Below are positions 1 to 46,848 of a stretch of DNA of 64,000 nt, piece after piece. The first letter of the stretch is position 1. Every line of letters starts with the position of its first letter. Below the pieces are notes generated by a model. It ran no database searches and was not told the DNA's origin. It was given only the letters and a program-made list of their open reading frames with translations. Location: positions 372,001-436,000 of the forward strand of contig NZ_JABFBC010000002.1 in the NCBI RefSeq assembly GCF_013093415.1. The letters run 5' to 3'. This stretch comes from Halovulum dunhuangense (GTDB lineage Bacteria; Pseudomonadota; Alphaproteobacteria; Rhodobacterales; Rhodobacteraceae). Made by a program: the position numbers and the translations under genes.

Positions 1-92
1 TCCGCTTCGGGGATGCCAAGGCCGGCGCCGATCTCGCGGATGGGTTTCTTCTGCGCGGCGCGGGCGATCTCGATGTCGGATTTCGGGGCCAT
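1..92 (-). CDS. fhs: formate--tetrahydrofolate ligase, N-terminal fragment
   Basis: Only the first 30 codons lie in the window; the gene runs off the left edge. The start is [20 protein letters not shown], followed by IGAGLGIP. The block [10 protein letters not shown] plus KPI and LGIP is the typical amino terminus of formate-tetrahydrofolate ligase, which makes 10-formyl-THF from formate, THF and ATP in cytosolic one-carbon metabolism. An AGGAG lies 11 nt before the ATG, a little far. The catalytic parts are outside the window, so integrity cannot be judged. The 155 bp between this start and the MOSC gene contains no convincing gene or promoter. Confidence 0.85.
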
Positions 93-36917: not shown

Positions 36918-36952
36918 GCCTCCGGCGGGGATATTTGAAGAAAGTGGAAGGC
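36918..36952 (+). repeat. interspersed 35-bp repeat, copy 1
   Basis: Starts GCCTCCGGCGGGGATATTT, four variable bases GAAG, then AAAGTGGAAGGC. Identical base for base to copy 3 at 42899-42933 (opposite strand). It lies upstream of the NYN gene in a non-coding gap. Confidence 0.85.
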
Positions 36953-37021
36953 GGTAACGCGCCGTTAAGTAAACGCGGGCCTTGCTGGCGGCACTGTACA
37001 GGCGGGGACGCCGATGACCGT

Positions 37022-37109
37022 GAAAGTGGAAGGCGCCCCGGGCCGAAGCGCCCCGGGGCGTCGGCCCCCTGCGGGCTTCCACTTTCCTGAAAACATCCCC
37101 GCCGGAGGC
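37022..37109. repeat. half copy plus diverged copy 2 of the 35-bp repeat, head to head
   Basis: AAAGTGGAAGGC at 37023-37034 is the right half of the repeat on the plus strand. A nearly full copy on the minus strand occupies 37075-37109 (GCCTCCGGCGGGGATGTTT in its left arm). The two right ends face each other, so GAAAGTGGAAG (37022-37032) pairs with CTTCCACTTTC (37076-37086); inside this lies a second stem CGCCCCGG / CCGGGGCG (37034-37041 / 37053-37060). The whole could fold as a long hairpin downstream of adhC. Confidence 0.75.
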
Positions 37110-37135
37110 CACCGCCGCATCCCGTGCCGCGCAGG

Positions 37136-38248
37136 TCAATAGAGCACCACCGACCGGATGCTTTCGCCCGCATGCATCAGGTCGAAGCCCTTGTTGATGT
37201 CCTCGAGCGGCATGGTGTGGGTGATCATCGGATCGATCTCGATCTTGCCCTCCATGTACCAGTCGACGATCTTCGGCACGTCCGTGCGCCCGCGCGCGCC
37301 GCCGAAGGCGGTGCCGCGCCACGACCGCCCCGTGACCAGCTGGAAGGGCCGGGTGGAAATCTCGGCCCCGGCGGGTGCCACGCCGATGATGATGCTCTCG
37401 CCCCAGCCCTTGTGGGCGCATTCGAGCGCGGTGCGCATCACCTTGACGTTGCCCGTGGCATCGAAGGTGTAGTCCGCGCCGCCCCTGGTCAGGTTCACCA
37501 GGTACGGCACGAGGTCGCCCTCGACTTCCGCCGGGTTCACGAAATGGGTCATGCCGAAGCGTTCGGCCATCGCCTTCTTGGCGGGGTTCAGATCCACGCC
37601 GACGATCTGGTCCGCGCCCGCAAGCCGCAGACCCTGGATCACGTTGAGCCCGATGCCGCCAAGGCCGAAGACGATGGCCCGGCAGCCGATCTCGGCCTTG
37701 GCGGTGTTGATCACCGCGCCGATGCCGGTGGTCACGCCGCAGCCGATGTAGCAGACCTTGTCGAAGGGCGCGTCCTCGCGGATCCTGGCCAGCGCGATCT
37801 CGGGCACCACGGTGAAGTTCGAGAAGGTGGACGTGCCCATGTAGTGAAAGATCGGGTCGCCATCGAGCGTGCGGAACCGCGAGCTGCCATCGGGCATCAG
37901 GCCCTGCCCTTGCGTCGAGCGGATCGACTGGCAGAGGTTGGTCTTGGGGTTGAGGCAGTATTCGCATTCCCGGCATTCGGGGGTGTAGAGCGGGATCACG
38001 TGATCGCCGGGCTTGAGCGATTTCACGCCCTCGCCCACCTCGACCACGACGCCGGCCCCCTCGTGACCGAGGATCGCCGGGAAGATGCCTTCGGGGTCCG
38101 CGCCCGACAGCGTGAACTCGTCGGTGTGGCAGATGCCCGTGGCCTTGATCTCGACCAGCACCTCGCCGGCGCGGGGTCCATCGAGTTCGACTTCGGCGAT
38201 TTCGAGGGGGGCTCCGGCCCGGGTTGCAATGGCGGCACGTGTCTTCAT
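37136..38248 (-). CDS. adhC: S-(hydroxymethyl)glutathione dehydrogenase (class III alcohol dehydrogenase)
   Basis: Zinc enzyme that oxidises S-hydroxymethylglutathione, formed from formaldehyde and glutathione, to S-formylglutathione with NAD+. The 370 residues show catalytic zinc ligands in GICHTDEFTLSG and LGHEGAGVVVEVGEG, four structural-zinc cysteines in PECRECEYCLNPKTNLC, the Rossmann GLGGIGLNVIQG and the typical C-terminus RSVVLY. The start at 38248 gives the conserved MKTRAAIA and has GGGAG upstream. FghA, the next enzyme, is encoded 2.4 kb away on the same strand. It is divergent from the EF-hand gene. Confidence 0.96.
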   Translation of the reverse strand: MKTRAAIATRAGAPLEIAEVELDGPRAGEVLVEIKATGICHTDEFTLSGADPEGIFPAILGHEGAGVVVEVGEGVKSLKPGDHVIPLYTPECRECEYCLNPKTNLCQSIRSTQGQGLMPDGSSRFRTLDGDPIFHYMGTSTFSNFTVVPEIALARIREDAPFDKVCYIGCGVTTGIGAVINTAKAEIGCRAIVFGLGGIGLNVIQGLRLAGADQIVGVDLNPAKKAMAERFGMTHFVNPAEVEGDLVPYLVNLTRGGADYTFDATGNVKVMRTALECAHKGWGESIIIGVAPAGAEISTRPFQLVTGRSWRGTAFGGARGRTDVPKIVDWYMEGKIEIDPMITHTMPLEDINKGFDLMHAGESIRSVVLY

Positions 38249-38390
38249 GGCAGGGCTCTCCCGTGGCTTGCGATGGAGCCGCACACTGCCCCGCAGGCGG
38301 AAAATTGGCAAGCCGCGCGACGGAACCTCGCAGCGCCTGCGTTTCACTTCCGTCAACCGGGCCGCGGCGGCCCATCAGAGGATGAAACAC

Positions 38391-38894
38391 ATGCGAAAAC
38401 ATCGGATCGGCGCCCTTCTCGGCGCAACCGCCCTGACGCTGGCGATGGTCGGGATCGCGGTCGCGCAGGACCGCGACGGATGGCGCGGGGGGCATGGCGG
38501 CGGTCACGCCATGGGCCACCATGACGGACCACGCGGCGCGGGCCGCGCCGGACAGCGGCTGATCGAGGCCCATGACGGGAACGGCGACGGAAGCGTCAGC
38601 CAGGAAGAGATCGACACCGCGCGAGCGGATCGCCTTGCCCGGTTCGATACCGACGGGAATGGGGTGCTCGACCTCGCCGAATACGAGGCGCTATGGCTCG
38701 ATGCGATGCGCGAGCGGATGGTGGACCGGTTCCAGGCCCATGACGACGATGGCGACGGAAGCGTCACGGTCGCGGAATTCGGCGCGGATACCTCGGGCCT
38801 GGTGGCCCGCTTCGACCGCAACGGCGACGGCGTGCTGAATGCCGAGGATCGCGCCCCGCGGGGCGAACGGTTGGGCCCGCGCGGCGGCAACTGA
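38391..38894 (+). CDS. exported EF-hand calcium-binding protein
   Basis: A 167-residue protein with a signal peptide ending near IAVAQ (about residue 26), a His/Gly-rich segment, and four EF-hand loops: DGNGDGSVSQEE, DTDGNGVLDLAE, DDDGDGSVTVAE and DRNGDGVLNAED. These have the D-x-[DN]-x-[DN]-G spacing needed for calcium. Bacterial proteins of this kind are calcium buffers or sensors in the periplasm; the partner is unknown. I took ATG 38391, preceded by AGAGGA at 8 nt, rather than the ATG at 38382, which sits on that ribosome-binding site. Confidence 0.88.
   Translation: MRKHRIGALLGATALTLAMVGIAVAQDRDGWRGGHGGGHAMGHHDGPRGAGRAGQRLIEAHDGNGDGSVSQEEIDTARADRLARFDTDGNGVLDLAEYEALWLDAMRERMVDRFQAHDDDGDGSVTVAEFGADTSGLVARFDRNGDGVLNAEDRAPRGERLGPRGGN
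38566..38766 (+). repeat. internal duplication within the EF-hand gene
   Basis: The 33-bp stretches 38566-38598 and 38734-38766 match at 29 of 33 positions, starting AGGCCCATGACG and ending GGCGACGGAAGCGTCA. They are 168 bp (56 codons) apart, one EF-hand pair. This indicates a recent duplication of, or gene conversion between, EF-hands 1 and 3. Confidence 0.8.
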
Positions 38895-38950
38895 TCGCCG
38901 CAGGTCGCACGAACGTGATGGGCCGGGCCGCCGCCGGTGCGGGGCCCGGC

Positions 38951-39370
38951 TCACTCCTCCTCGACGGTGCCACGCAGGCGCTTGACGGCCCCGCGCCGGG
39001 TCTTGGCCTCCAGCCGGCGGCGCTTCGAGCCGAGCGTGGGCCGCGTCGGCACCCGCTTTTTCGGCGCGACCAGCGCCTTGGCGATCAGCGCCGCCAGCCT
39101 TTCGCGCGCCTCCTCGCGGTTGCGGGCCTGGCTGCGATGGGTGTCCACCTGGATCAGGATGGCGCCCTCCTTCGTCCAGCGGCTTCCCGCAAGGCGCTTC
39201 AGCCGTGCCTTGACCGCGGGCGCCAGGTGCGGGGAACGCGCCGCCTCGAAGCGCAACTCCACCGCGGTCGCGACCTTGTTGACGTTCTGCCCACCGGGGC
39301 CCGAGGCCCGCACGAAGCTTTCCGTCAGTTCCCAGTCCGCGATCGTGACGCTTTCGGAGACGCGCAGCAT
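38951..39370 (-). CDS. arfB: alternative ribosome-rescue factor ArfB (YaeJ)
   Basis: Peptidyl-tRNA hydrolase that frees ribosomes stalled on mRNAs lacking a stop codon. The 139 residues carry the GGQ loop in RASGPGGQNVNKVATAVELR (GGQ at 26-28), as in class I release factors, and a basic C-terminal tail (KKRVPTRPTLGSKRRRLEAK) that enters the empty mRNA channel. No codon-recognition domain is present, which separates it from RF1/RF2. It follows dnaE with a 26-bp gap and may be co-transcribed with it. Confidence 0.94.
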   Translation of the reverse strand: MLRVSESVTIADWELTESFVRASGPGGQNVNKVATAVELRFEAARSPHLAPAVKARLKRLAGSRWTKEGAILIQVDTHRSQARNREEARERLAALIAKALVAPKKRVPTRPTLGSKRRRLEAKTRRGAVKRLRGTVEEE

Positions 39371-39396
39371 TTCAGGCCCCGCGCCCGGGCCGGGGA

Positions 39397-42300
39397 TCAG
39401 AATTCCTCGACATGGGCAACGCCTGGCACATGCTTGATGGCGCCGCGGATCTGCGGCGTGACCGGGTAGCGGTCGGGCAGCGTCACCTCCACCTCGCCGG
39501 GCAGGTCGGGCGACATCAGCACCAGGTTCACCGGCCCCGCGCCCCGCGCGCGCGCCGCCGCCGCCTCCATCAGCCGCGTCGCAACCGAAGGAATGGCGGC
39601 AGCATCGTTGAGAAAGATGCGCAGCCCTGCTGGCGCCGCGCCCGCGACCGCGTCATCGACCGACTGCACCCCGCGTGCGAGCAGCTTCATCTGGTCGCTC
39701 TCCAGCGTCGCCTCGACCGTCAGCACCACGTTGGTGCCCGGCTCCAGCAGGTCGCGCGCGGCCTCCAGCGTGTCCGAGAACACCGTGACCTCGTAAAGCC
39801 CGGTCGGGTCCGACAGCTGGACAAAGGCGAAGCGGTTGCCGCGGGCCGACTTGCGCTCCTGCCGGGCGGCGACGGCGCCGGCGATCTTGGCGGCCTGCGG
39901 GCCGGATTTCACCTTTTCCGACAACTCGGCCAGGGTCAGCACGCGCTGCCGCTTGAGCGGCCCGAGGTAGTCGTCCAGCGGATGGCCAGACAGGTAGAAC
40001 CCCACCGCCTGGTGCTCCTGGCCCAGGCGCTCGGTGGGCAGCCAGTCCTCCGGCTCGGAAAGACGCGGCACCGGCAATTCCGAGCCGCCGTCCCCGAACA
40101 TCGAGATCTGCGCCGAGGCGCGGTCCTCGTGCGCCGCGGCCGAGAAGGCCACCAGCCGGTCGAGGTTCTCGAACATCTTGCGGCGGTTCGCGTCGAGCCC
40201 GTCGAAGGCGCCGGCCCGCGCCAGCATCTCGAGCGGGCGCTTGCCCACGCGCTTCAGATCCACCCGCCGGGCAAAGTCGAAGATGTCGCGGAACCGCCCA
40301 CCCTCCTGGCGCGCGGCGGTGATCAGGCGCATCGCCTCGACGCCCACGTTCTTCAGCGCGCCCAGCGCATAGACGATCCGCCCCTCGCTGACCGAGAATG
40401 TCGCCTCGGACCGGTTCACGCAGGGCGGGATCATCTCGATGCCGAGCCGGTCCACCTCCTGCTTGTAGACGTTCAGCTTGTCGGTCAGGTGGATATCGCA
40501 GTTCATCACCGCGGCCATGAACTCGACCGGGTAATTCGCCTTCAGCCAGGCCGTCTGGTAGCTGACCACCGCATAGGCGGCGGCGTGGGACTTGTTGAAA
40601 CCGTAATTGGCGAACTTGTCGAGAAGGTTCCAGACCTCCAGCGCCTTGGCCTCGTCGACGCCGTTCGCCTTCGCGCCGTCCAGGAACTTGGGGCGCTCGG
40701 CGTCCATCGCCTCCTGGATCTTCTTGCCCATCGCGCGCCGCAGCATGTCGGCGCCGCCAAGGGAGTAGCCCGCCATCTTGCGGGCGATCTCCATCACCTG
40801 CTCCTGGTAGACGATGATGCCCTGCGTCTCGTCGAGGATGCCGTCGATCAGCGGATGGATCGACTCGCGCTCCTCCAGCCCGTTCTTCACGCGGCAGAAC
40901 TTGGGGATGTTCTCCATCGGGCCGGGGCGATAAAGGGCCACCAGCGCGATGATGTCCTCGATGCAGTCGGGCTTCATCTGCCGCAGGGCATCCTTCATGC
41001 CCGAGCTTTCCACCTGGAACACCGCGACCGTCTCGGCCCGCGCATAGACCTCGTAGGTCTTCGCGTCGTCCAGCGGGATCGCCCCGATATCCACCTCTAT
41101 GCCGCGCGGCTTCAGCAGGTCCAGCGCGTTCTGGATCACCGTCAGCGTCTTGAGGCCGAGGAAGTCGAACTTCACAAGCCCCGCCTGCTCAACCCATTTC
41201 ATGTTGAACTGGGTGGCCGGCATGTCCGAGCGCGGATCCTTGTAGAGCGGCACAAGCTCCACCAGCGGCCGGTCGCCGATCACCACGCCCGCGGCATGGG
41301 TCGAGGCGTTCCTGAGCAGCCCCTCGACCTTTTCGGCATAGTCGAGCATCCGGCCCACCACCTCCTCGCGGCGGGCCTCCTCGCGCAGGCGCGGCTCGTC
41401 GGTCAGCGCCTTGCCGATCGAGACGGGCTTCACCCCCTCGACCGGGATCAGCTTCGAGAGCCGGTCCACCTGGCCATAGGGCATCTGCAGCACGCGGCCC
41501 ACGTCGCGCACCGCGGCCTTGGACAGCAGCGCGCCGAAGGTGATGATCTGCGCCACCCGGTCGCGGCCGTATTTCTCCTGGACGTAATGGATGACCTCCT
41601 CGCGGCGGTCCATGCAGAAGTCGATGTCGAAATCCGGCATCGAGATGCGCTCGGGGTTCAGGAAGCGCTCGAACAGCAGCGAATAGCGCAGCGGGTCCAG
41701 GTCGGTGATGGTCAGCGCATAGGCGACAAGGCTGCCCGCCCCCGACCCGCGGCCCGGCCCGACCGGGATGTCGTGCTCCTTCGCCCACTTGATGAAATCG
41801 GCGACGATCAGGAAATAGCCGGGAAAGCCCATCCCCTCGATGATGCCCAGCTCGAACTCGAGCCGCTTCTCGTACTCCTCGACGGGCGCCGCGTGGGGGA
41901 TGACCGCAAGCCGCGCCTTCAGCCCCTCGACCGCCTGCCGGCGCAACTCGTCCACCTCGTTCTCGGCAAAGCGCGGCAGGATCGGATCGCGCGTCCGGGC
42001 GCGATAGGCGCAGCGCCGGGCGATCTCGACGGTGTTCGCGACGGCCTCGGGCAGGTCGTCGAACAGCTTCACCATCTCGTCCTGCGACTTGAAATGGTGC
42101 TGGTCGGTCAGCTTCCGGCGCGGCGCGGTCTGGTCGACATAGGCCCCCTCGGCAATGCAGATCAGCGCATCATGGGCCTCGTACATCGAAGGCTCGGCGA
42201 AATGCACGTCGTTGGTGGCGACCAGCGGCAGGTCGAGCGCGTAGGCCAGCTCCACCATGCCCGGCTCGGTCGCGGTCTCCAGCGGCGTGCGCCGCGCGCC

Positions 42301-42849
42301 ACCCTCGGGATGGCGCTGGATCTCGACATAGAGCCGGTCGCCGTAGATCCCGGCCAACCGCTCCAGCAGGGCGCGCGCGGCAGGCCCCTGGCCGGCTGCG
42401 ATCGGGGTGCCGAGCGGCCCCTCGGCGCCGCCCGTGAGGCAGATCAGCCCCTCGGCATTGGCCGCCAGGTCCTCCAGCGTCACATGCGGCGGCAGGTCTC
42501 CGCTGCCCAGGTAGTAGCGGCTGGTCAGCTTCATCAGGTTCATGTAGCCCGCCTCGTCCTGCGCCAGCAGGACGACAGGGCGGGGTTTGGGGAACTCGTT
42601 GGGGCGTGCGGCGGGCCCGGCCGTCTCGCTCAGGACCGGCATCTGGCAGCCGATGATCGGCTGTATGCCCGCCTTGGCCGCCGCCTCGGAAAACTCCAGC
42701 GCCGCGAACAGGTTGCCGCTGTCGGTCACCGCGACGGCGGGCATCTGCGCCTTCGCCGCCAAGGCCGGCAGCGCCTTGACCTGGATCGCCCCTTCCAGAA
42801 GCGAATAGGCGGAATGAACGCGAAGATGGATGAATCGTGGTTCGGACAT
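39397..42849 (-). CDS. dnaE: DNA polymerase III subunit alpha
   Basis: Catalytic subunit of the replicative polymerase. The 1150 residues start [20 protein letters not shown], the PHP domain signature of DnaE1; error-prone DnaE2 begins differently. Other hallmarks are [16 protein letters not shown] (about residue 361), the catalytic [13 protein letters not shown] (about 402-414), [20 protein letters not shown] and a C-terminal OB-fold region. The start at 42849 is chosen by the conserved N-terminus. Divergent from xdhA across a 256-bp gap that contains repeat copy 3. Confidence 0.98.
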
Positions 42850-42898
42850 GCCCCGATCCAGACGCCGCCGCGCCCCCCAAGTCAAGCCCGCCCCCCAG

Positions 42899-42933
42899 GC
42901 CTTCCACTTTCTTCAAATATCCCCGCCGGAGGC
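42899..42933 (-). repeat. interspersed 35-bp repeat, copy 3
   Basis: Minus-strand copy identical to copy 1 over all 35 bases. Its upstream flank CGCCGGATG, together with TCCGGCG in the repeat, forms a 7-bp hairpin (CGCCGGA-TGCC-TCCGGCG) that is shared with copy 4. It lies in the dnaE-xdhA intergenic region. Confidence 0.85.
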
Positions 42934-43007
42934 ATCCGGCGCTGGCCATGCGGACAGCCCCCGGGCGGTTCAGGGAAGGCTTGCCAAACGGCCCGATCCA
43001 CGCTTTT

Positions 43008-43028
43008 CTACCAATTGGTCAAAACCGC
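43008..43028. promoter_or_regulatory. palindromic operator candidate upstream of xdhA
   Basis: ACCAATTGGT (43010-43019) is a perfect 10-bp palindrome and overlaps GGTCAAAACC (43017-43026), a second GGT/ACC dyad. GGT-N-ACC half-sites of this kind are typical of GntR-family (FadR/PdhR-like) repressors. It lies about 80 bp before xdhA. No regulator gene is nearby, so this is a low-confidence proposal. Confidence 0.3.
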
Positions 43029-43105
43029 CGTGTGCCCGGCTTTACGCCGCATCGGGCCGCGCACGCAGACAGGCGGAACGGCAGAGAAGGCGGCGGGTTG
43101 TCCGA

Positions 43106-44509
43106 ATGGAAATCGCGTTTCTTCTGAACGGAGAAACCGTGCGCGAAAGGGTCATGGACCCCACGCGCACCCTGCTCGACTGGCTGCGCGAGACGCGCCG
43201 CCTGTCCGGCACGAAGGAAGGTTGCAACGAAGGCGACTGCGGCGCCTGCACGGTCACCGTCTCGGCGCTGGAGAACGGCCAGCTCGTCCACCGGGCGCTG
43301 AACGCCTGCATCCTGTTCCTGCCCCAGTTGCACGGCAAGGCGGTGCGCACGGTCGAGGGCATCGCCGCACCCGACGGGGCGCTGCACCCGGTCCAGCAGG
43401 CGATGGTAGAACATCACGGTTCGCAATGCGGCTTCTGCACGCCGGGGGTGGTGATGTCGCTCTATACCGCGCATCGCGACGGGCGGCGGGATTTCGACGA
43501 CGTGCTGGCCGGCAACCTGTGCCGCTGCACGGGCTATGCCCCGATCATCCGCGCGGCCGACGCCGCGGCAGAAGCGCCGCGGCCGGCCTGGGAGAAGGAC
43601 GAGACCGCGGCACTCGCGGCGCTCGGCCAACGTGGCGATCTCCAGGGCGGGCAGGCGTATCTGCCCGACGATCTCGACGCCTTTGCCGCCTGGTACGAAG
43701 CGCACCCCGAGGCGACGCTCGTCGCGGGGGCGACCGATGTCGGGCTGTGGGTCACCAAGCAGCTGCGCACCCTCGCGCCTGTCGCCTTCCTCCACCGGCT
43801 GGAAGCGCTGCAGCGGATCGAGACGGATGCCGCGGGCATCACGATCGGCGCGGGCGTCACCCTGTCGCGGCTGCGCGGCGTCATGGCCGCGCGACACCCG
43901 GATTTCGCCGAGCTGATCCGCCGCTACGGATCGGTGCAGGTCAGGAACGCCGCCACCATCGGCGGCAACATCGCGAACGGCTCGCCCATCGGGGACGGCC
44001 CACCGGCGCTGATCGCGCAGGGCGCAAGCCTGACGCTGCGGCGCGGCGCCGAACGGCGGACGCTTCCGCTGGAGGATTTCTTCCTCGACTACGGGAAACA
44101 GGACCGGCGGCCGGGCGAGTTCGTCGAAAGCATCCACATCCCGGCCCAGCCCGACCGGCTGCGCTGCTACAAGCTGTCCAAGCGCTTCGACCAGGACATC
44201 TCGGCCGTGTGCGGCTGCTTCAGCATCACGATCGAGGACGGCCATGTGAACGCGGCGCGCATCGCCTTCGGCGGCATGGCGGGCATCCCGAAACGGGCGG
44301 CCCATGTCGAGGCGGCGCTTGTCGGACACCCCTGGGAGGAAGCGACGGTGCGTTCCGCGCAGGGCGCCTTCGCGCTCGATTTCACGCCCTTGTCCGACAT
44401 GCGCGCCTCGGCGGGCTACAGGCTGAGGGCCGCGCAGAACATGCTTTTGCGCGCGTATCATGAGGATCGTGGCACGCGGACCCGGCTGGTCGGGCGGGGG
44501 GCGGCATGA
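43106..44509 (+). CDS. xdhA: xanthine dehydrogenase small subunit
   Basis: Iron-sulfur and FAD subunit that passes electrons from the molybdenum site to NAD+ during oxidation of hypoxanthine and xanthine to urate. The 467 residues show a plant-type [2Fe-2S] cluster (Cys40, 45, 48, 68 in [13 protein letters not shown] and the following segment), a second cluster (CGFCTPG and CRCTGY; Cys108, 111, 139, 141), an FAD-binding domain with [11 protein letters not shown] and [17 protein letters not shown], and the CO-dehydrogenase flavoprotein C-domain. ATG 43106 gives the standard MEIAFLLNG start; its ribosome-binding site is weak. First gene of an eight-gene operon. Confidence 0.96.
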
Positions 44510-46848
44510 GCGTCCATCGCCCCACGGCGCACGACAGCGCCACGCTCCATGTCACGGGGGCCGCGCGCTACACCGACGACCTGCCGGTGCCGGTCGATAC
44601 CGTCCACCTGGCCTTCGGCACCTCGCCGCAGGCCAACGGAACGCTGCGCGGCATGGACCTGTCGGCGGTCCGCACCGCGCCCGGCGTGATCGACGTGCTG
44701 ACGGCCGCGGACCTGCCGCACGAGAACGACGTCTCGCCCTCGCCCTGGCCCGAGCCGCTGCTGGCGACGGACCGGGTGCATTACCTGGGCCAGCCGGTGT
44801 TCCTGGTGGTGGCGGAAAGCCATCTTGCGGCGCGCAAGGCCGCGCGCCTCGCCCGGTTCGAGATCGACGCGGACACCCCGGTCCTGACCATCGAGGACGC
44901 GCTGGCAGCAAGCCGCGAATTCGAACCGCCGGTCACCCATGAGCGCGGCGACCCGGACCCCGCCATCGCCACCGCCCCGCACCGGATCGAGGGGACGATC
45001 GCGATGGGCGGGCAGGAGCATTTCTACCTCGAGGGGCAGGCGGCGCTCGCCCTGCCCGGCGAGGGCGGCGAGATCCATGTCGTAAGTTCGACCCAGCACC
45101 CCACGGAAATCCAGCACAAGGTGGCCCATGCGCTGGGCGTGCCTTACGCCGCGGTCCGGTCCGAGGTGCGGCGCATGGGCGGCGGCTTTGGCGGCAAGGA
45201 AAGCCAGGGCAACGCGCTGGCGGTGGCCTGCGCCGTGGTCGCGCACAGGCTCAAACGGCCGGCCCGGATGCGCTACGACCGCGACGACGATTTCATCATC
45301 ACCGGCAAGCGCCACGATTTCCGCATCGACTATCGCGCGGGGGTGGACGACGAGGGCCGCATCCTCGGGATCGAGTTCCGCCAGTATTGCCGGGGCGGCT
45401 GGTCGCAGGACCTGACCCTGCCGGTGGCCGACCGGGCGATGCTGCATGCCGACAACGCCTACTGGCTGCCCAAGGTGCGGATCGTGTCGCACCGCCTGAT
45501 CACCAACACCCAGAGCGCGACCGCCTTTCGCGGCTTTGGCGGGCCGCAGGGGATGCTGGGGATCGAGCGGGTGATGGACCACATCGCCCATGCGCTGGGC
45601 CGCGATCCGCTGGAGGTGCGGCGCGTCAATTTCTATGCGGATGCGCCGGTGGCGGCGCCGGATGCCTCCGGCGGGGATATTTCGGGAAAGTGGAAGGCGG
45701 GGCAGCTGACCCCCTACCACATGCCCGTGACCGACTGCATCGTGAACGCGCTGGTGGACCGGCTGGCGGAGCGTTCCGACTACGCGGCGCGGCGCGCGGC
45801 AATCGAGGCGTGGAACCGCGCGAGCCCGGTGCTCAAGCGCGGCATCGCGCTGAGCCCGGTCAAGTTCGGGATATCCTTCACGCTGACGCATCTGAACCAG
45901 GCGGGCGCGCTGGTGCATGTCTATTCCGACGGCTCGATCCACCTGAACCATGGCGGGACAGAGATGGGCCAGGGGCTGAACACCAAGGTCGCGCAGGTCG
46001 CGGCCGAGGTGTTTGCCCGGCCGCTTGGCAGCGTGAAGATCACCGCGACCGACACGACGAAGGTGCCCAACACATCGGCCACCGCCGCCTCTTCGGGGTC
46101 GGATCTGAACGGCATGGCCTGCAAGGCCGCCTGCGAGACGATCCGCGACCGGCTGGCCGATTTCGCGGCGCGCCACTGGCAGGCGGAGCGGGCCGAGATC
46201 CGCTTCGTCCCCGAGGGGGTGGACCTGGGCAGCCGCGTGCTGCCCTTCGAGGAGGTGGTGGCGGCGGCTTATGCGAACCGGGTGTCGCTGTCCTCGACCG
46301 GTTTCTACGCGACGCCCGACATCGTCTGGGACCGCCGCGCCGGGCGTGGACGCCCGTTCTACTACTTCGCCTACGGCGCGGCGGTGACCGAGGTGACCAT
46401 CGACACGCTGACCGGCGAGTACCGCATCGACCGCGCCGACATCCTGCATGACTGTGGAAAGTCGCTGAACCCGGCCATCGACATCGGCCAGATCGAGGGC
46501 GGCTATGTGCAGGGCGCGGGCTGGCTGACCACCGAGGAACTGGTCTGGGACGACAAGGGGCGGCTCAGGACGCACGCGCCGTCGACCTACAAGATCCCGG
46601 CCTGCGGCGATCGTCCGCGCGTCTTCAACGTGGAGCTTTGGGACGGCGAGAACCGGGAGCAGACGATCTACCGATCCAAGGCGGTGGGCGAGCCGCCCTT
46701 CATGCTGGGGATCTCGGCGCTGATGGCGCTGTCGCATGCGGTGGCGCAATGCGGCGACGGCAGTCTCTATCCGTCGCTCGACGCCCCTGCCACGCCGGAG
46801 CGGATCCTGCGCGCGGTGGATGCCCAGCGCGGGCGGGCCTGGGAATGA
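44506..46848 (+). CDS. xdhB: xanthine dehydrogenase molybdopterin-binding subunit
   Basis: Catalytic subunit carrying the molybdenum cofactor. The 780 residues include [75 protein letters not shown], and near the C-terminus [15 protein letters not shown], which carries the catalytic Glu. The start overlaps xdhA as ATGA. Between NFYADAP and LTPYHMP it contains a 35-bp dispersed repeat read in frame (codons 387-398), giving [12 protein letters not shown]. This segment is longer than in XdhB proteins as I remember them. The frame stays open and all motifs are present, so the enzyme is probably functional. Confidence 0.95.
45664..45698 (+). repeat. interspersed 35-bp repeat, copy 4, in frame inside xdhB
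   Basis: Same ends as copy 1 (GCCTCCGGCGGGGATATTT and AAAGTGGAAGGC) with CGGG instead of GAAG in the centre (3 mismatches in 35). It begins exactly on codon 387 of xdhB and reads through as coding. It shares the upstream GCGCCGGAT flank with copy 3, giving 28 identical bases on that side. Confidence 0.85.

What the first reader, a model, noticed from the sequence alone, without database searches (positions are those of the whole stretch)
36918..45698. A short dispersed repeat family with a fixed 35-bp architecture
Four sites (36918-36952, 37075-37109, 42899-42933, 45664-45698) share GCCTCCGGCGGGGATATTT, a variable centre of about four bases, and AAAGTGGAAGGC. Copies 1 and 3 are identical over 35 bp though 6 kb apart and on opposite strands. 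A half copy lies at 37023-37034. Copies 3 and 4 also share an upstream GCGCCGGAT, which makes a 7-bp hairpin with the repeat. The first half is GC-rich and the second purine-rich, suggesting two joined functional halves. I know similar GCCTCCGGCGGG motifs recur in Rhodobacteraceae genomes but know of no accepted name or mechanism. Four copies in 9 kb and none elsewhere in this window suggests clustering.
Basis: partly seen in the sequence, partly recalled or inferred. Interest (0 to 1): 0.75.

Follow-up and report, generated by a model that had tools for sequence, protein, structure and literature searches.

The report
Rhodobacteraceae gene-end repeat with dialects
A 33-base DNA repeat scattered at the ends of genes across one bacterial family has a fixed half shared by most species and a second half that differs from genome to genome yet is nearly uniform within several of them, which suggests that an unknown cellular factor reads it.

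Summary
The four copies are real and belong to a much larger family. The own genome holds 30 copies; 121 of 149 sampled genomes of its GTDB family hold 1-152; of 187 sampled genomes of other families in the class, one has a single match. Each unit is a 19-nt core (GCCTCCGGCGGGGATATTT), a 3-nt free spacer and an 11-nt arm that differs between genomes. In all 11 genomes measured the arm is less diverged than the spacer beside it; in the own genome the figures are 0.01 and 0.25. Copies lie just behind stop codons in either orientation, favour convergent gene pairs and avoid divergent ones. That is REP-like behaviour, but no RAYT was found in the own genome and no GTAG or CGTC tag recurs at a fixed place in its copies. 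The same arm also follows other heads, or none. Copy 4 lies in frame inside xdhB; other genera carry the element at that site, and its arm tends to match the host genome's arm (P 0.002). Best reading: a new, RAYT-less REP-like family kept as a bipartite recognition site for an unidentified factor. Single copies do not look like intrinsic terminators.

The parts
36918..36950 (+). Copy 1: core 36918-36936, spacer GAA 36937-36939, arm GAAAGTGGAAG 36940-36950. Tail-to-tail with copy 2.
   Evidence: conserved pair in Halovulum marinum
37075..37109 (-). Copy 2: core with one mismatch (GATGTTT), 4-nt spacer, arm. Begins about 27 nt behind the stop of the gene 37136-38248 (-).
37022..37034 (+). Half copy: arm GAAAGTGGAAGGC without a core; pairs as an inverted repeat with the arm of copy 2 (GAAAGTGGAAG / CTTCCACTTTC).
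42901..42933 (-). Copy 3: identical to copy 1, in the divergent intergenic region between the gene 39397-42849 (-) and the gene 43106-44509 (+). Not found at the orthologous place in H. marinum.
45664..45696 (+). Copy 4: in frame inside the xdhB-like ORF, spacer CGG, encodes [11 protein letters not shown].
44506..46848 (+). xdhB-like ORF (xanthine dehydrogenase large subunit) that carries copy 4.
   Evidence: matches R. capsulatus XDH chain B, PDB 1jro, over residues 1-778

Best explanation
It is a family-wide, RAYT-less REP-like extragenic element that now acts as a bipartite recognition site. The 19-nt core (a small dyad or hairpin plus ATATTT) is read in the same way across the family. After three unread bases follows an 11-nt arm that is read by a component whose specificity changes between lineages, so that the copies of a genome carry that genome's arm or its few arm types. 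The sites sit at gene 3' ends, most often between convergent genes, in either orientation, which points to action on DNA (protein binding at transcript ends: insulation, supercoil handling or a transcription road-block) more than to a strand-specific RNA signal. Copies spread in the past by insertion, including into the tolerant XdhB loop. Shown here: anatomy, distribution, gene-end location, within-genome constraint on core and arm, arm matching in xdhB. Inferred: the trans-acting factor, that it is a protein, and that it acts on DNA.
For: Own genome: 30 copies, 29 with an exact core, reversed-pattern control 0. Family: 121 of 149 genomes; outside: 1 of 187 with one hit. Arm less diverged than spacer in 11 of 11 genomes (own 0.01 against 0.25; G132 0.11/0.49; G444 0.13/0.47; G063 0.16/0.67), flanks +34..44 at 0.46-0.73: recent copying alone would keep the spacer too. 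Orthologous cimA-cysS copy in three species of the genus: identical core, different arms. Arm shared by a second head in the same genome (L263) and by head-B or headless sites: 11 of 67 non-A sites within 2 mismatches of the own genome's arm against 2.4 for other genomes' arms. XdhB arm against own-genome intergenic arms: summed distance 14 against 24.4 permuted, P 0.002; exact in own, G444, G144, G003. Location: convergent 44 against divergent 11; 68 of 88 co-directional copies nearer the stop than the next start; orientation 52 to 36, P 0.11.
Against: No factor was identified; no gene family of interest recurs beside copies. Not every genome is uniform: arm divergence is 0.40 in G074, 0.48 in G144 (two arm types) and 0.53 in G019, and the XdhB arm is not closest to its own genome in G019, G021, G141 and G111. 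28 of 149 family genomes have no match, so any function is dispensable or carried by other motifs. Core invariance is partly ascertained, since copies were found by the core. The core covariation and the shared spacers of head-to-head pairs (8 of 15) would also fit an RNA or single-strand hairpin. Copies 3 and 4 are not shared with both congeners, so there is also gain or loss.
Confidence: 0.45

Rival explanations
1. A non-autonomous mobile element (REPIN- or MITE-like) spread by a transposase other than a RAYT; the arm is the enzyme's recognition end and changes when the enzyme changes; the 3' ends are simply tolerated sites.
For: In the XdhB tree head A, head B and no insert are interspersed (13 label changes; A needs at least 4 and B at least 3 on starred branches); own xdhB has the element while its sister G149 (99/95) has none. 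The own xdhB copy also matches the genus-type upstream flank (17 of 26 positions, within the range 7-22 of all 30 own copies). Copy 3 is missing at the orthologous place in H. marinum. Head-to-head pairs exist (15 collected), as in REPINs.
Against: No linked transposase: PF01797 in 15 of 149 genomes and not in the own one; no recurrent neighbour gene. Spacer and flanks are diverged while arm and core are not, which copying without constraint does not give. No clean empty site with a target duplication was seen (the region is too diverged).
Confidence: 0.3
2. An RNA-level 3'-end element: intrinsic terminator or mRNA-stabilising hairpin (GC-rich head followed by AUAUUU).
For: Lies behind stop codons and favours convergent pairs; compensatory changes at core positions 5 and 11; head-to-head pairs of G063 fold into a long stem, and 8 of 15 collected pairs share the spacer (permuted mean 1.3, 0 of 5000; fold of one pair); head B has strong hairpins.
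Against: Single own copies fold no better than shuffles (mean z -0.07 sense, -0.83 antisense); none of the five terminator-like hits falls on a copy; orientation to the gene is not fixed (52 to 36); copies lie in gaps between co-directional neighbours, among them rfbB|rfbD and inside xdhB; in L220 the core follows a T-tract already behind a hairpin.
Confidence: 0.17
3. A DNA-uptake or chromosome-organisation signal (like DUS dialects, matS or Noc sites).
For: Dispersed, dialect-forming between species.
Against: Only about 30 copies in 3.66 Mb, restricted to gene ends; no strand or position pattern was apparent on the own contigs (by eye; not tested statistically).
Confidence: 0.05

Closest known systems
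REP elements (GTAG and CGTC super-families)
   Same: Short dispersed repeats, between unidirectional and convergent genes, next to 3' ends, as singlets or head-to-head dimers, sometimes inside ORFs, and in two Xanthomonas species at about the same site of recB (PMC3733652, abstract and sections 6 and 15 read); CGTC REPs of Alphaproteobacteria likewise lack a dedicated transposase.
   Different: No GTAG or CGTC tag at a fixed place; a genome-specific 11-nt arm separated from the core by a free spacer and shared by different heads; six Rhodobacteraceae/alphaproteobacteria terms have 0 occurrences in that paper's main text.
REPINs with RAYT transposases
   Same: Inverted pairs and within-genome sequence identity (REPIN paper PMC3116915: search listing and start of abstract only).
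   Different: No RAYT (PF01797) in the own genome or in any of the 12 sampled genomes with 60 or more copies; mostly single copies.
Rickettsia palindromic elements (RPE)
   Same: In-frame insertion into a protein-coding gene (PMC10969869, two passages seen).
   Different: About 55 nt against about 150 bp; one coding site (xdhB) seen among 30 own copies; otherwise intergenic.
Neisserial DNA uptake sequence dialects (recalled)
   Same: Species-specific dialects; inverted pairs at gene ends.
   Different: Much longer site and far fewer copies.

Membership tests
REP elements (loose sense) | 20-40 nt repeats, intergenic, at gene 3' ends, convergent over divergent | tested here: met
   33-nt unit; 44 convergent against 11 divergent; 68 of 88 co-directional copies nearer the stop
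REP elements (loose sense) | palindromic unit with a stable stem | tested here: inconclusive
   core pairs 5/11 covary, but single own copies fold no better than shuffles
GTAG or CGTC REP super-families | terminal unpaired GTAG or CGTC tag | tested here: not met
   no tag at a fixed position in 5 or more of 30 own copies, -30..+65; variants of the tag (TGTC, CCTC) not tested
RAYT-mobilised REP/REPIN | RAYT (Y1_Tnp, PF01797) in the genome | tested here: not met
   absent from the own genome; 15 of 149 family genomes
Intrinsic terminator | stable hairpin followed by a T-run at the sites | tested here: not met
   no hit at the four copies; z about 0. Head-B variants were not scanned for T-runs
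MITE | terminal inverted repeats and target-site duplication | tested here: inconclusive
   inverted pairs exist; no clean empty site found
Rickettsia palindromic element | in-frame insertion in ORFs with sequence relation to RPE families | tested here: inconclusive
   in-frame site in xdhB met; sequence relation to RPE families not tested
Rfam RNA families | match to a curated RNA family | tested here: not met
   0 matches at gathering thresholds in the window

The most novel reading that the evidence does not exclude
Probability: 0.3. Interest if true: 0.85.

Novelty: new variant of a known kind. Interest (0 to 1): 0.6.

Why it matters
REP-like repeats are usually explained by a RAYT and a hairpin. 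This family has no detected RAYT in the genome studied, spans most sampled genera of a large and ecologically important bacterial family, and shows concerted change of a short arm at unlinked sites while the bases beside it drift. That makes a cis-trans coevolution question testable: find what reads the arm. It also explains an odd, insert-bearing loop in XdhB proteins of the family, including, as an inference from its protein sequence, that of the solved R. capsulatus enzyme.

Tried and rejected
RAYT linkage: rejected. A linked trans-factor gene by clustering the neighbours of 201 unique copies: the largest group was ABC-type permeases, a large family, so no candidate. Rfam: nothing. Canonical terminator: rejected for single copies. 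A separate guide-like gene carrying the own arm: 24 exact GAAAGTGGAAGG sites in the own genome; apart from sites at cores only the half copy and one head-B element remain. Clustering: not significant. The motif in print: exact strings (0 papers; then 13 papers with unrelated titles, listing only), topic searches (listings with starts of abstracts); no name found in this open-access library. Papers looked into: PMC3733652 (abstract, outline, sections 6 and 15), PMC10969869 and PMC12306157 (passages by word search), PMC1590033 (word search; one table passage).

Limits: genes come from my own codon-bias caller, weak for lower-GC genomes. The 11 G149 places were picked because they aligned with the own window, which favours own-like arms. 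XdhB head labels were assigned by eye; 7 of its 42 rows could not be parsed, 2 repeated a genome, and 33 went into the tree.

Full report
1. Observation. Copies 1 and 3 are identical. Copy 2 has one core mismatch and one extra base. Copy 4 lies inside an ORF (44506-46848) that matches R. capsulatus xanthine dehydrogenase chain B end to end.

2. Family. The own genome (3.66 Mb, 26 contigs) has 30 core matches within 2 mismatches, 29 exact, with 0 for the reversed pattern. In 149 genomes of the GTDB family 121 match, with 1 to 152 copies; the control pattern hit one genome (G138, 1+1). Across the class, the pattern GCCTNCGGCGNGGATATTT without mismatches hit 2 of 190 genomes: the own one and one stray match in G229, a genome of another family. 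Of the 190, 187 are of other families; the two further genomes of the own family in that draw had none. Two records carry other names (an Enemella assembly, a Sphingomonadales MAG); I take these for contamination or misbinning, untested.

3. Anatomy. Logos from six sets give core +1..+19, spacer +20..+22, arm +23..+33. Commonest arms: own GAAAGTGGAAG (27 of 30), G132 GCAAGATGAAG (10 of 12), G444 GCCAGAAGAAG (12 of 16 GGAT-type), G063 GACACATGATG (22 of 31), G141 AACAGAAGAAG (7 of 7 GGAT-type); G149 has GACAAAGTG in 7 of 10. Mean pairwise divergence in the own genome: upstream 10 nt 0.31, spacer 0.25, arm 0.01, next 11 nt 0.46. In all 11 genomes the arm is below the spacer, but narrowly in G144 (0.48/0.52) and G074 (0.40/0.50). 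Core dialects coexist within genomes and can go with their own arms (G345, G141, small numbers). Core positions 5 and 11: C-G 307, T-A 9, G-C 8, C-A 1 of 325 copies; the non-C-G cases come mostly from one genome, G120, so the number of independent events is small, though one search lists further T-A cores in G444 and G345.

4. Other heads. One own site has the arm behind a different GC-rich head, CCCCCTGAGGATATTT (L263); in the own genome only this one exact site lacks head A. In nine genomes, 11 of 67 GRTATTT-type sites without head A carry an arm within 2 mismatches of that genome's arm, against 2.4 when scored with other genomes' arms; five of these have no GC-rich head. So the smallest recurrent unit appears to be RTATTT + 3 nt + arm.

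5. Pairs. Head-to-head pairs (15 collected; 11 from G063, whose pairs I fetched on purpose) share the 3-nt spacer in 8 cases against 1.3 by permutation (0 of 5000). Tail-to-tail pairs share it in 1 of 10, not significant. Either the long stem matters or the pairs arose by local inverted duplication. One pair folds at -76.9 kcal/mol.

6. Place. Of 162 copies (own, G074, named), 52 are co-directional sense, 36 co-directional antisense, 44 convergent, 11 divergent, 2 in a CDS, 17 at contig edges or unresolved. Intergenic baseline in the named loci: 88 convergent, 119 divergent. Co-directional copies are nearer the stop than the next start in 68 of 88; sense against antisense is not significant, P 0.11. 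In the five annotated plasmid regions looked at, the copies lie outside annotated genes; in four both neighbours are listed and point the same way, once between rfbB and rfbD with a 66-bp gap. One search has a gap in its gene table; the sixth region had no annotation.

7. xdhB. Among 42 XdhB rows the site between RRxNYY and QTTPY carries head A with core and arm in nine genomes (own, G003, G019, G021, G345, G141, G144, G111, G444), a head-B form in six (G455, G467, G016, G012, G006, G010), other or decayed linkers in seven, no insert in eleven; seven rows were not parsed and two repeat a genome. The family search matched 16 of 295 genomes at E 1e-7 with a query that includes the element. The tree needs 13 label changes; the own copy is nested with an insert-free sister, G149. 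XdhB arms fit their own genome's intergenic arms: summed distance 14 against 24.4, P 0.002, still about 0.002 with 5 arms per genome. Exact in own, G444, G144 and G003, one mismatch in G345, no better than other genomes in G019, G021, G141, G111. R. capsulatus XDH (1jro) has the linker GGLSAPPSPPEPIATKKTQ, which I read as a head-B descendant; its DNA was not examined.

8. Conservation of position. The pair of copies 1 and 2 is at the orthologous place in H. marinum with both orientations kept. The cimA-cysS copy is present in own, H. marinum and G149 with identical core and different arms (gene names by inspection). Copy 3 is not at the orthologous place in H. marinum. Of the 29 own sites outside the CDS, only a minority had flanking genes that matched an H. 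marinum element locus; absence at the rest was not checked one by one.

9. Mechanism. What is shown is a bipartite unit with constraint on both halves and none or little between them, a lineage-specific arm, gene-end location without fixed orientation, and occasional gain in a coding gene. Most likely this is a REP-like element retained as a DNA recognition site. The factor is inferred, not seen. The mobile rival explains xdhB and copy 3 better; the site model explains spacer against arm better; both may be true in turn.

10. Known kinds. In PMC3733652 (abstract, sections 6 and 15 read) REPs have the same gene-end distribution, dimers and intragenic cases, and CGTC REPs lack a transposase of their own. 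The tags that define those super-families were not found here at a fixed place, and the genome has no PF01797 match. I therefore file it as a new variant of a known kind, not as a member of either super-family.

Noticed in passing
L116, L124, L131, L132, L137, L140, L143, L161, L167, L210: A second recurrent gene-end form, CCCCCGGGATATTT behind a GGGGGC-n-GCCCCC hairpin (head B), often tail-to-tail with head A and sharing its arm.
   Followed up: partly
PDB 1jro chain B, linker GGLSAPPSPPEPIATKKTQ: The loop of the solved R. capsulatus XDH looks like a translated head-B element; DNA not checked.
   Followed up: no
L158 and L134: Element hits in records named Enemella and Sphingomonadales, probably contaminating or misbinned Rhodobacteraceae contigs.
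   Followed up: no
G120: L220: The core begins directly behind a T-tract that follows a hairpin, so there the terminator-like structure precedes the element.
   Followed up: no
G063, L283-L295: Head-to-head pairs with loops of 32-34 nt and matching spacers, several between convergent genes, look like a discrete ~105-nt palindromic subfamily.
   Followed up: partly
G054: Twelve PF01797 matches in a family genome with no core match; a different REP or IS200 system may live there.
   Followed up: no
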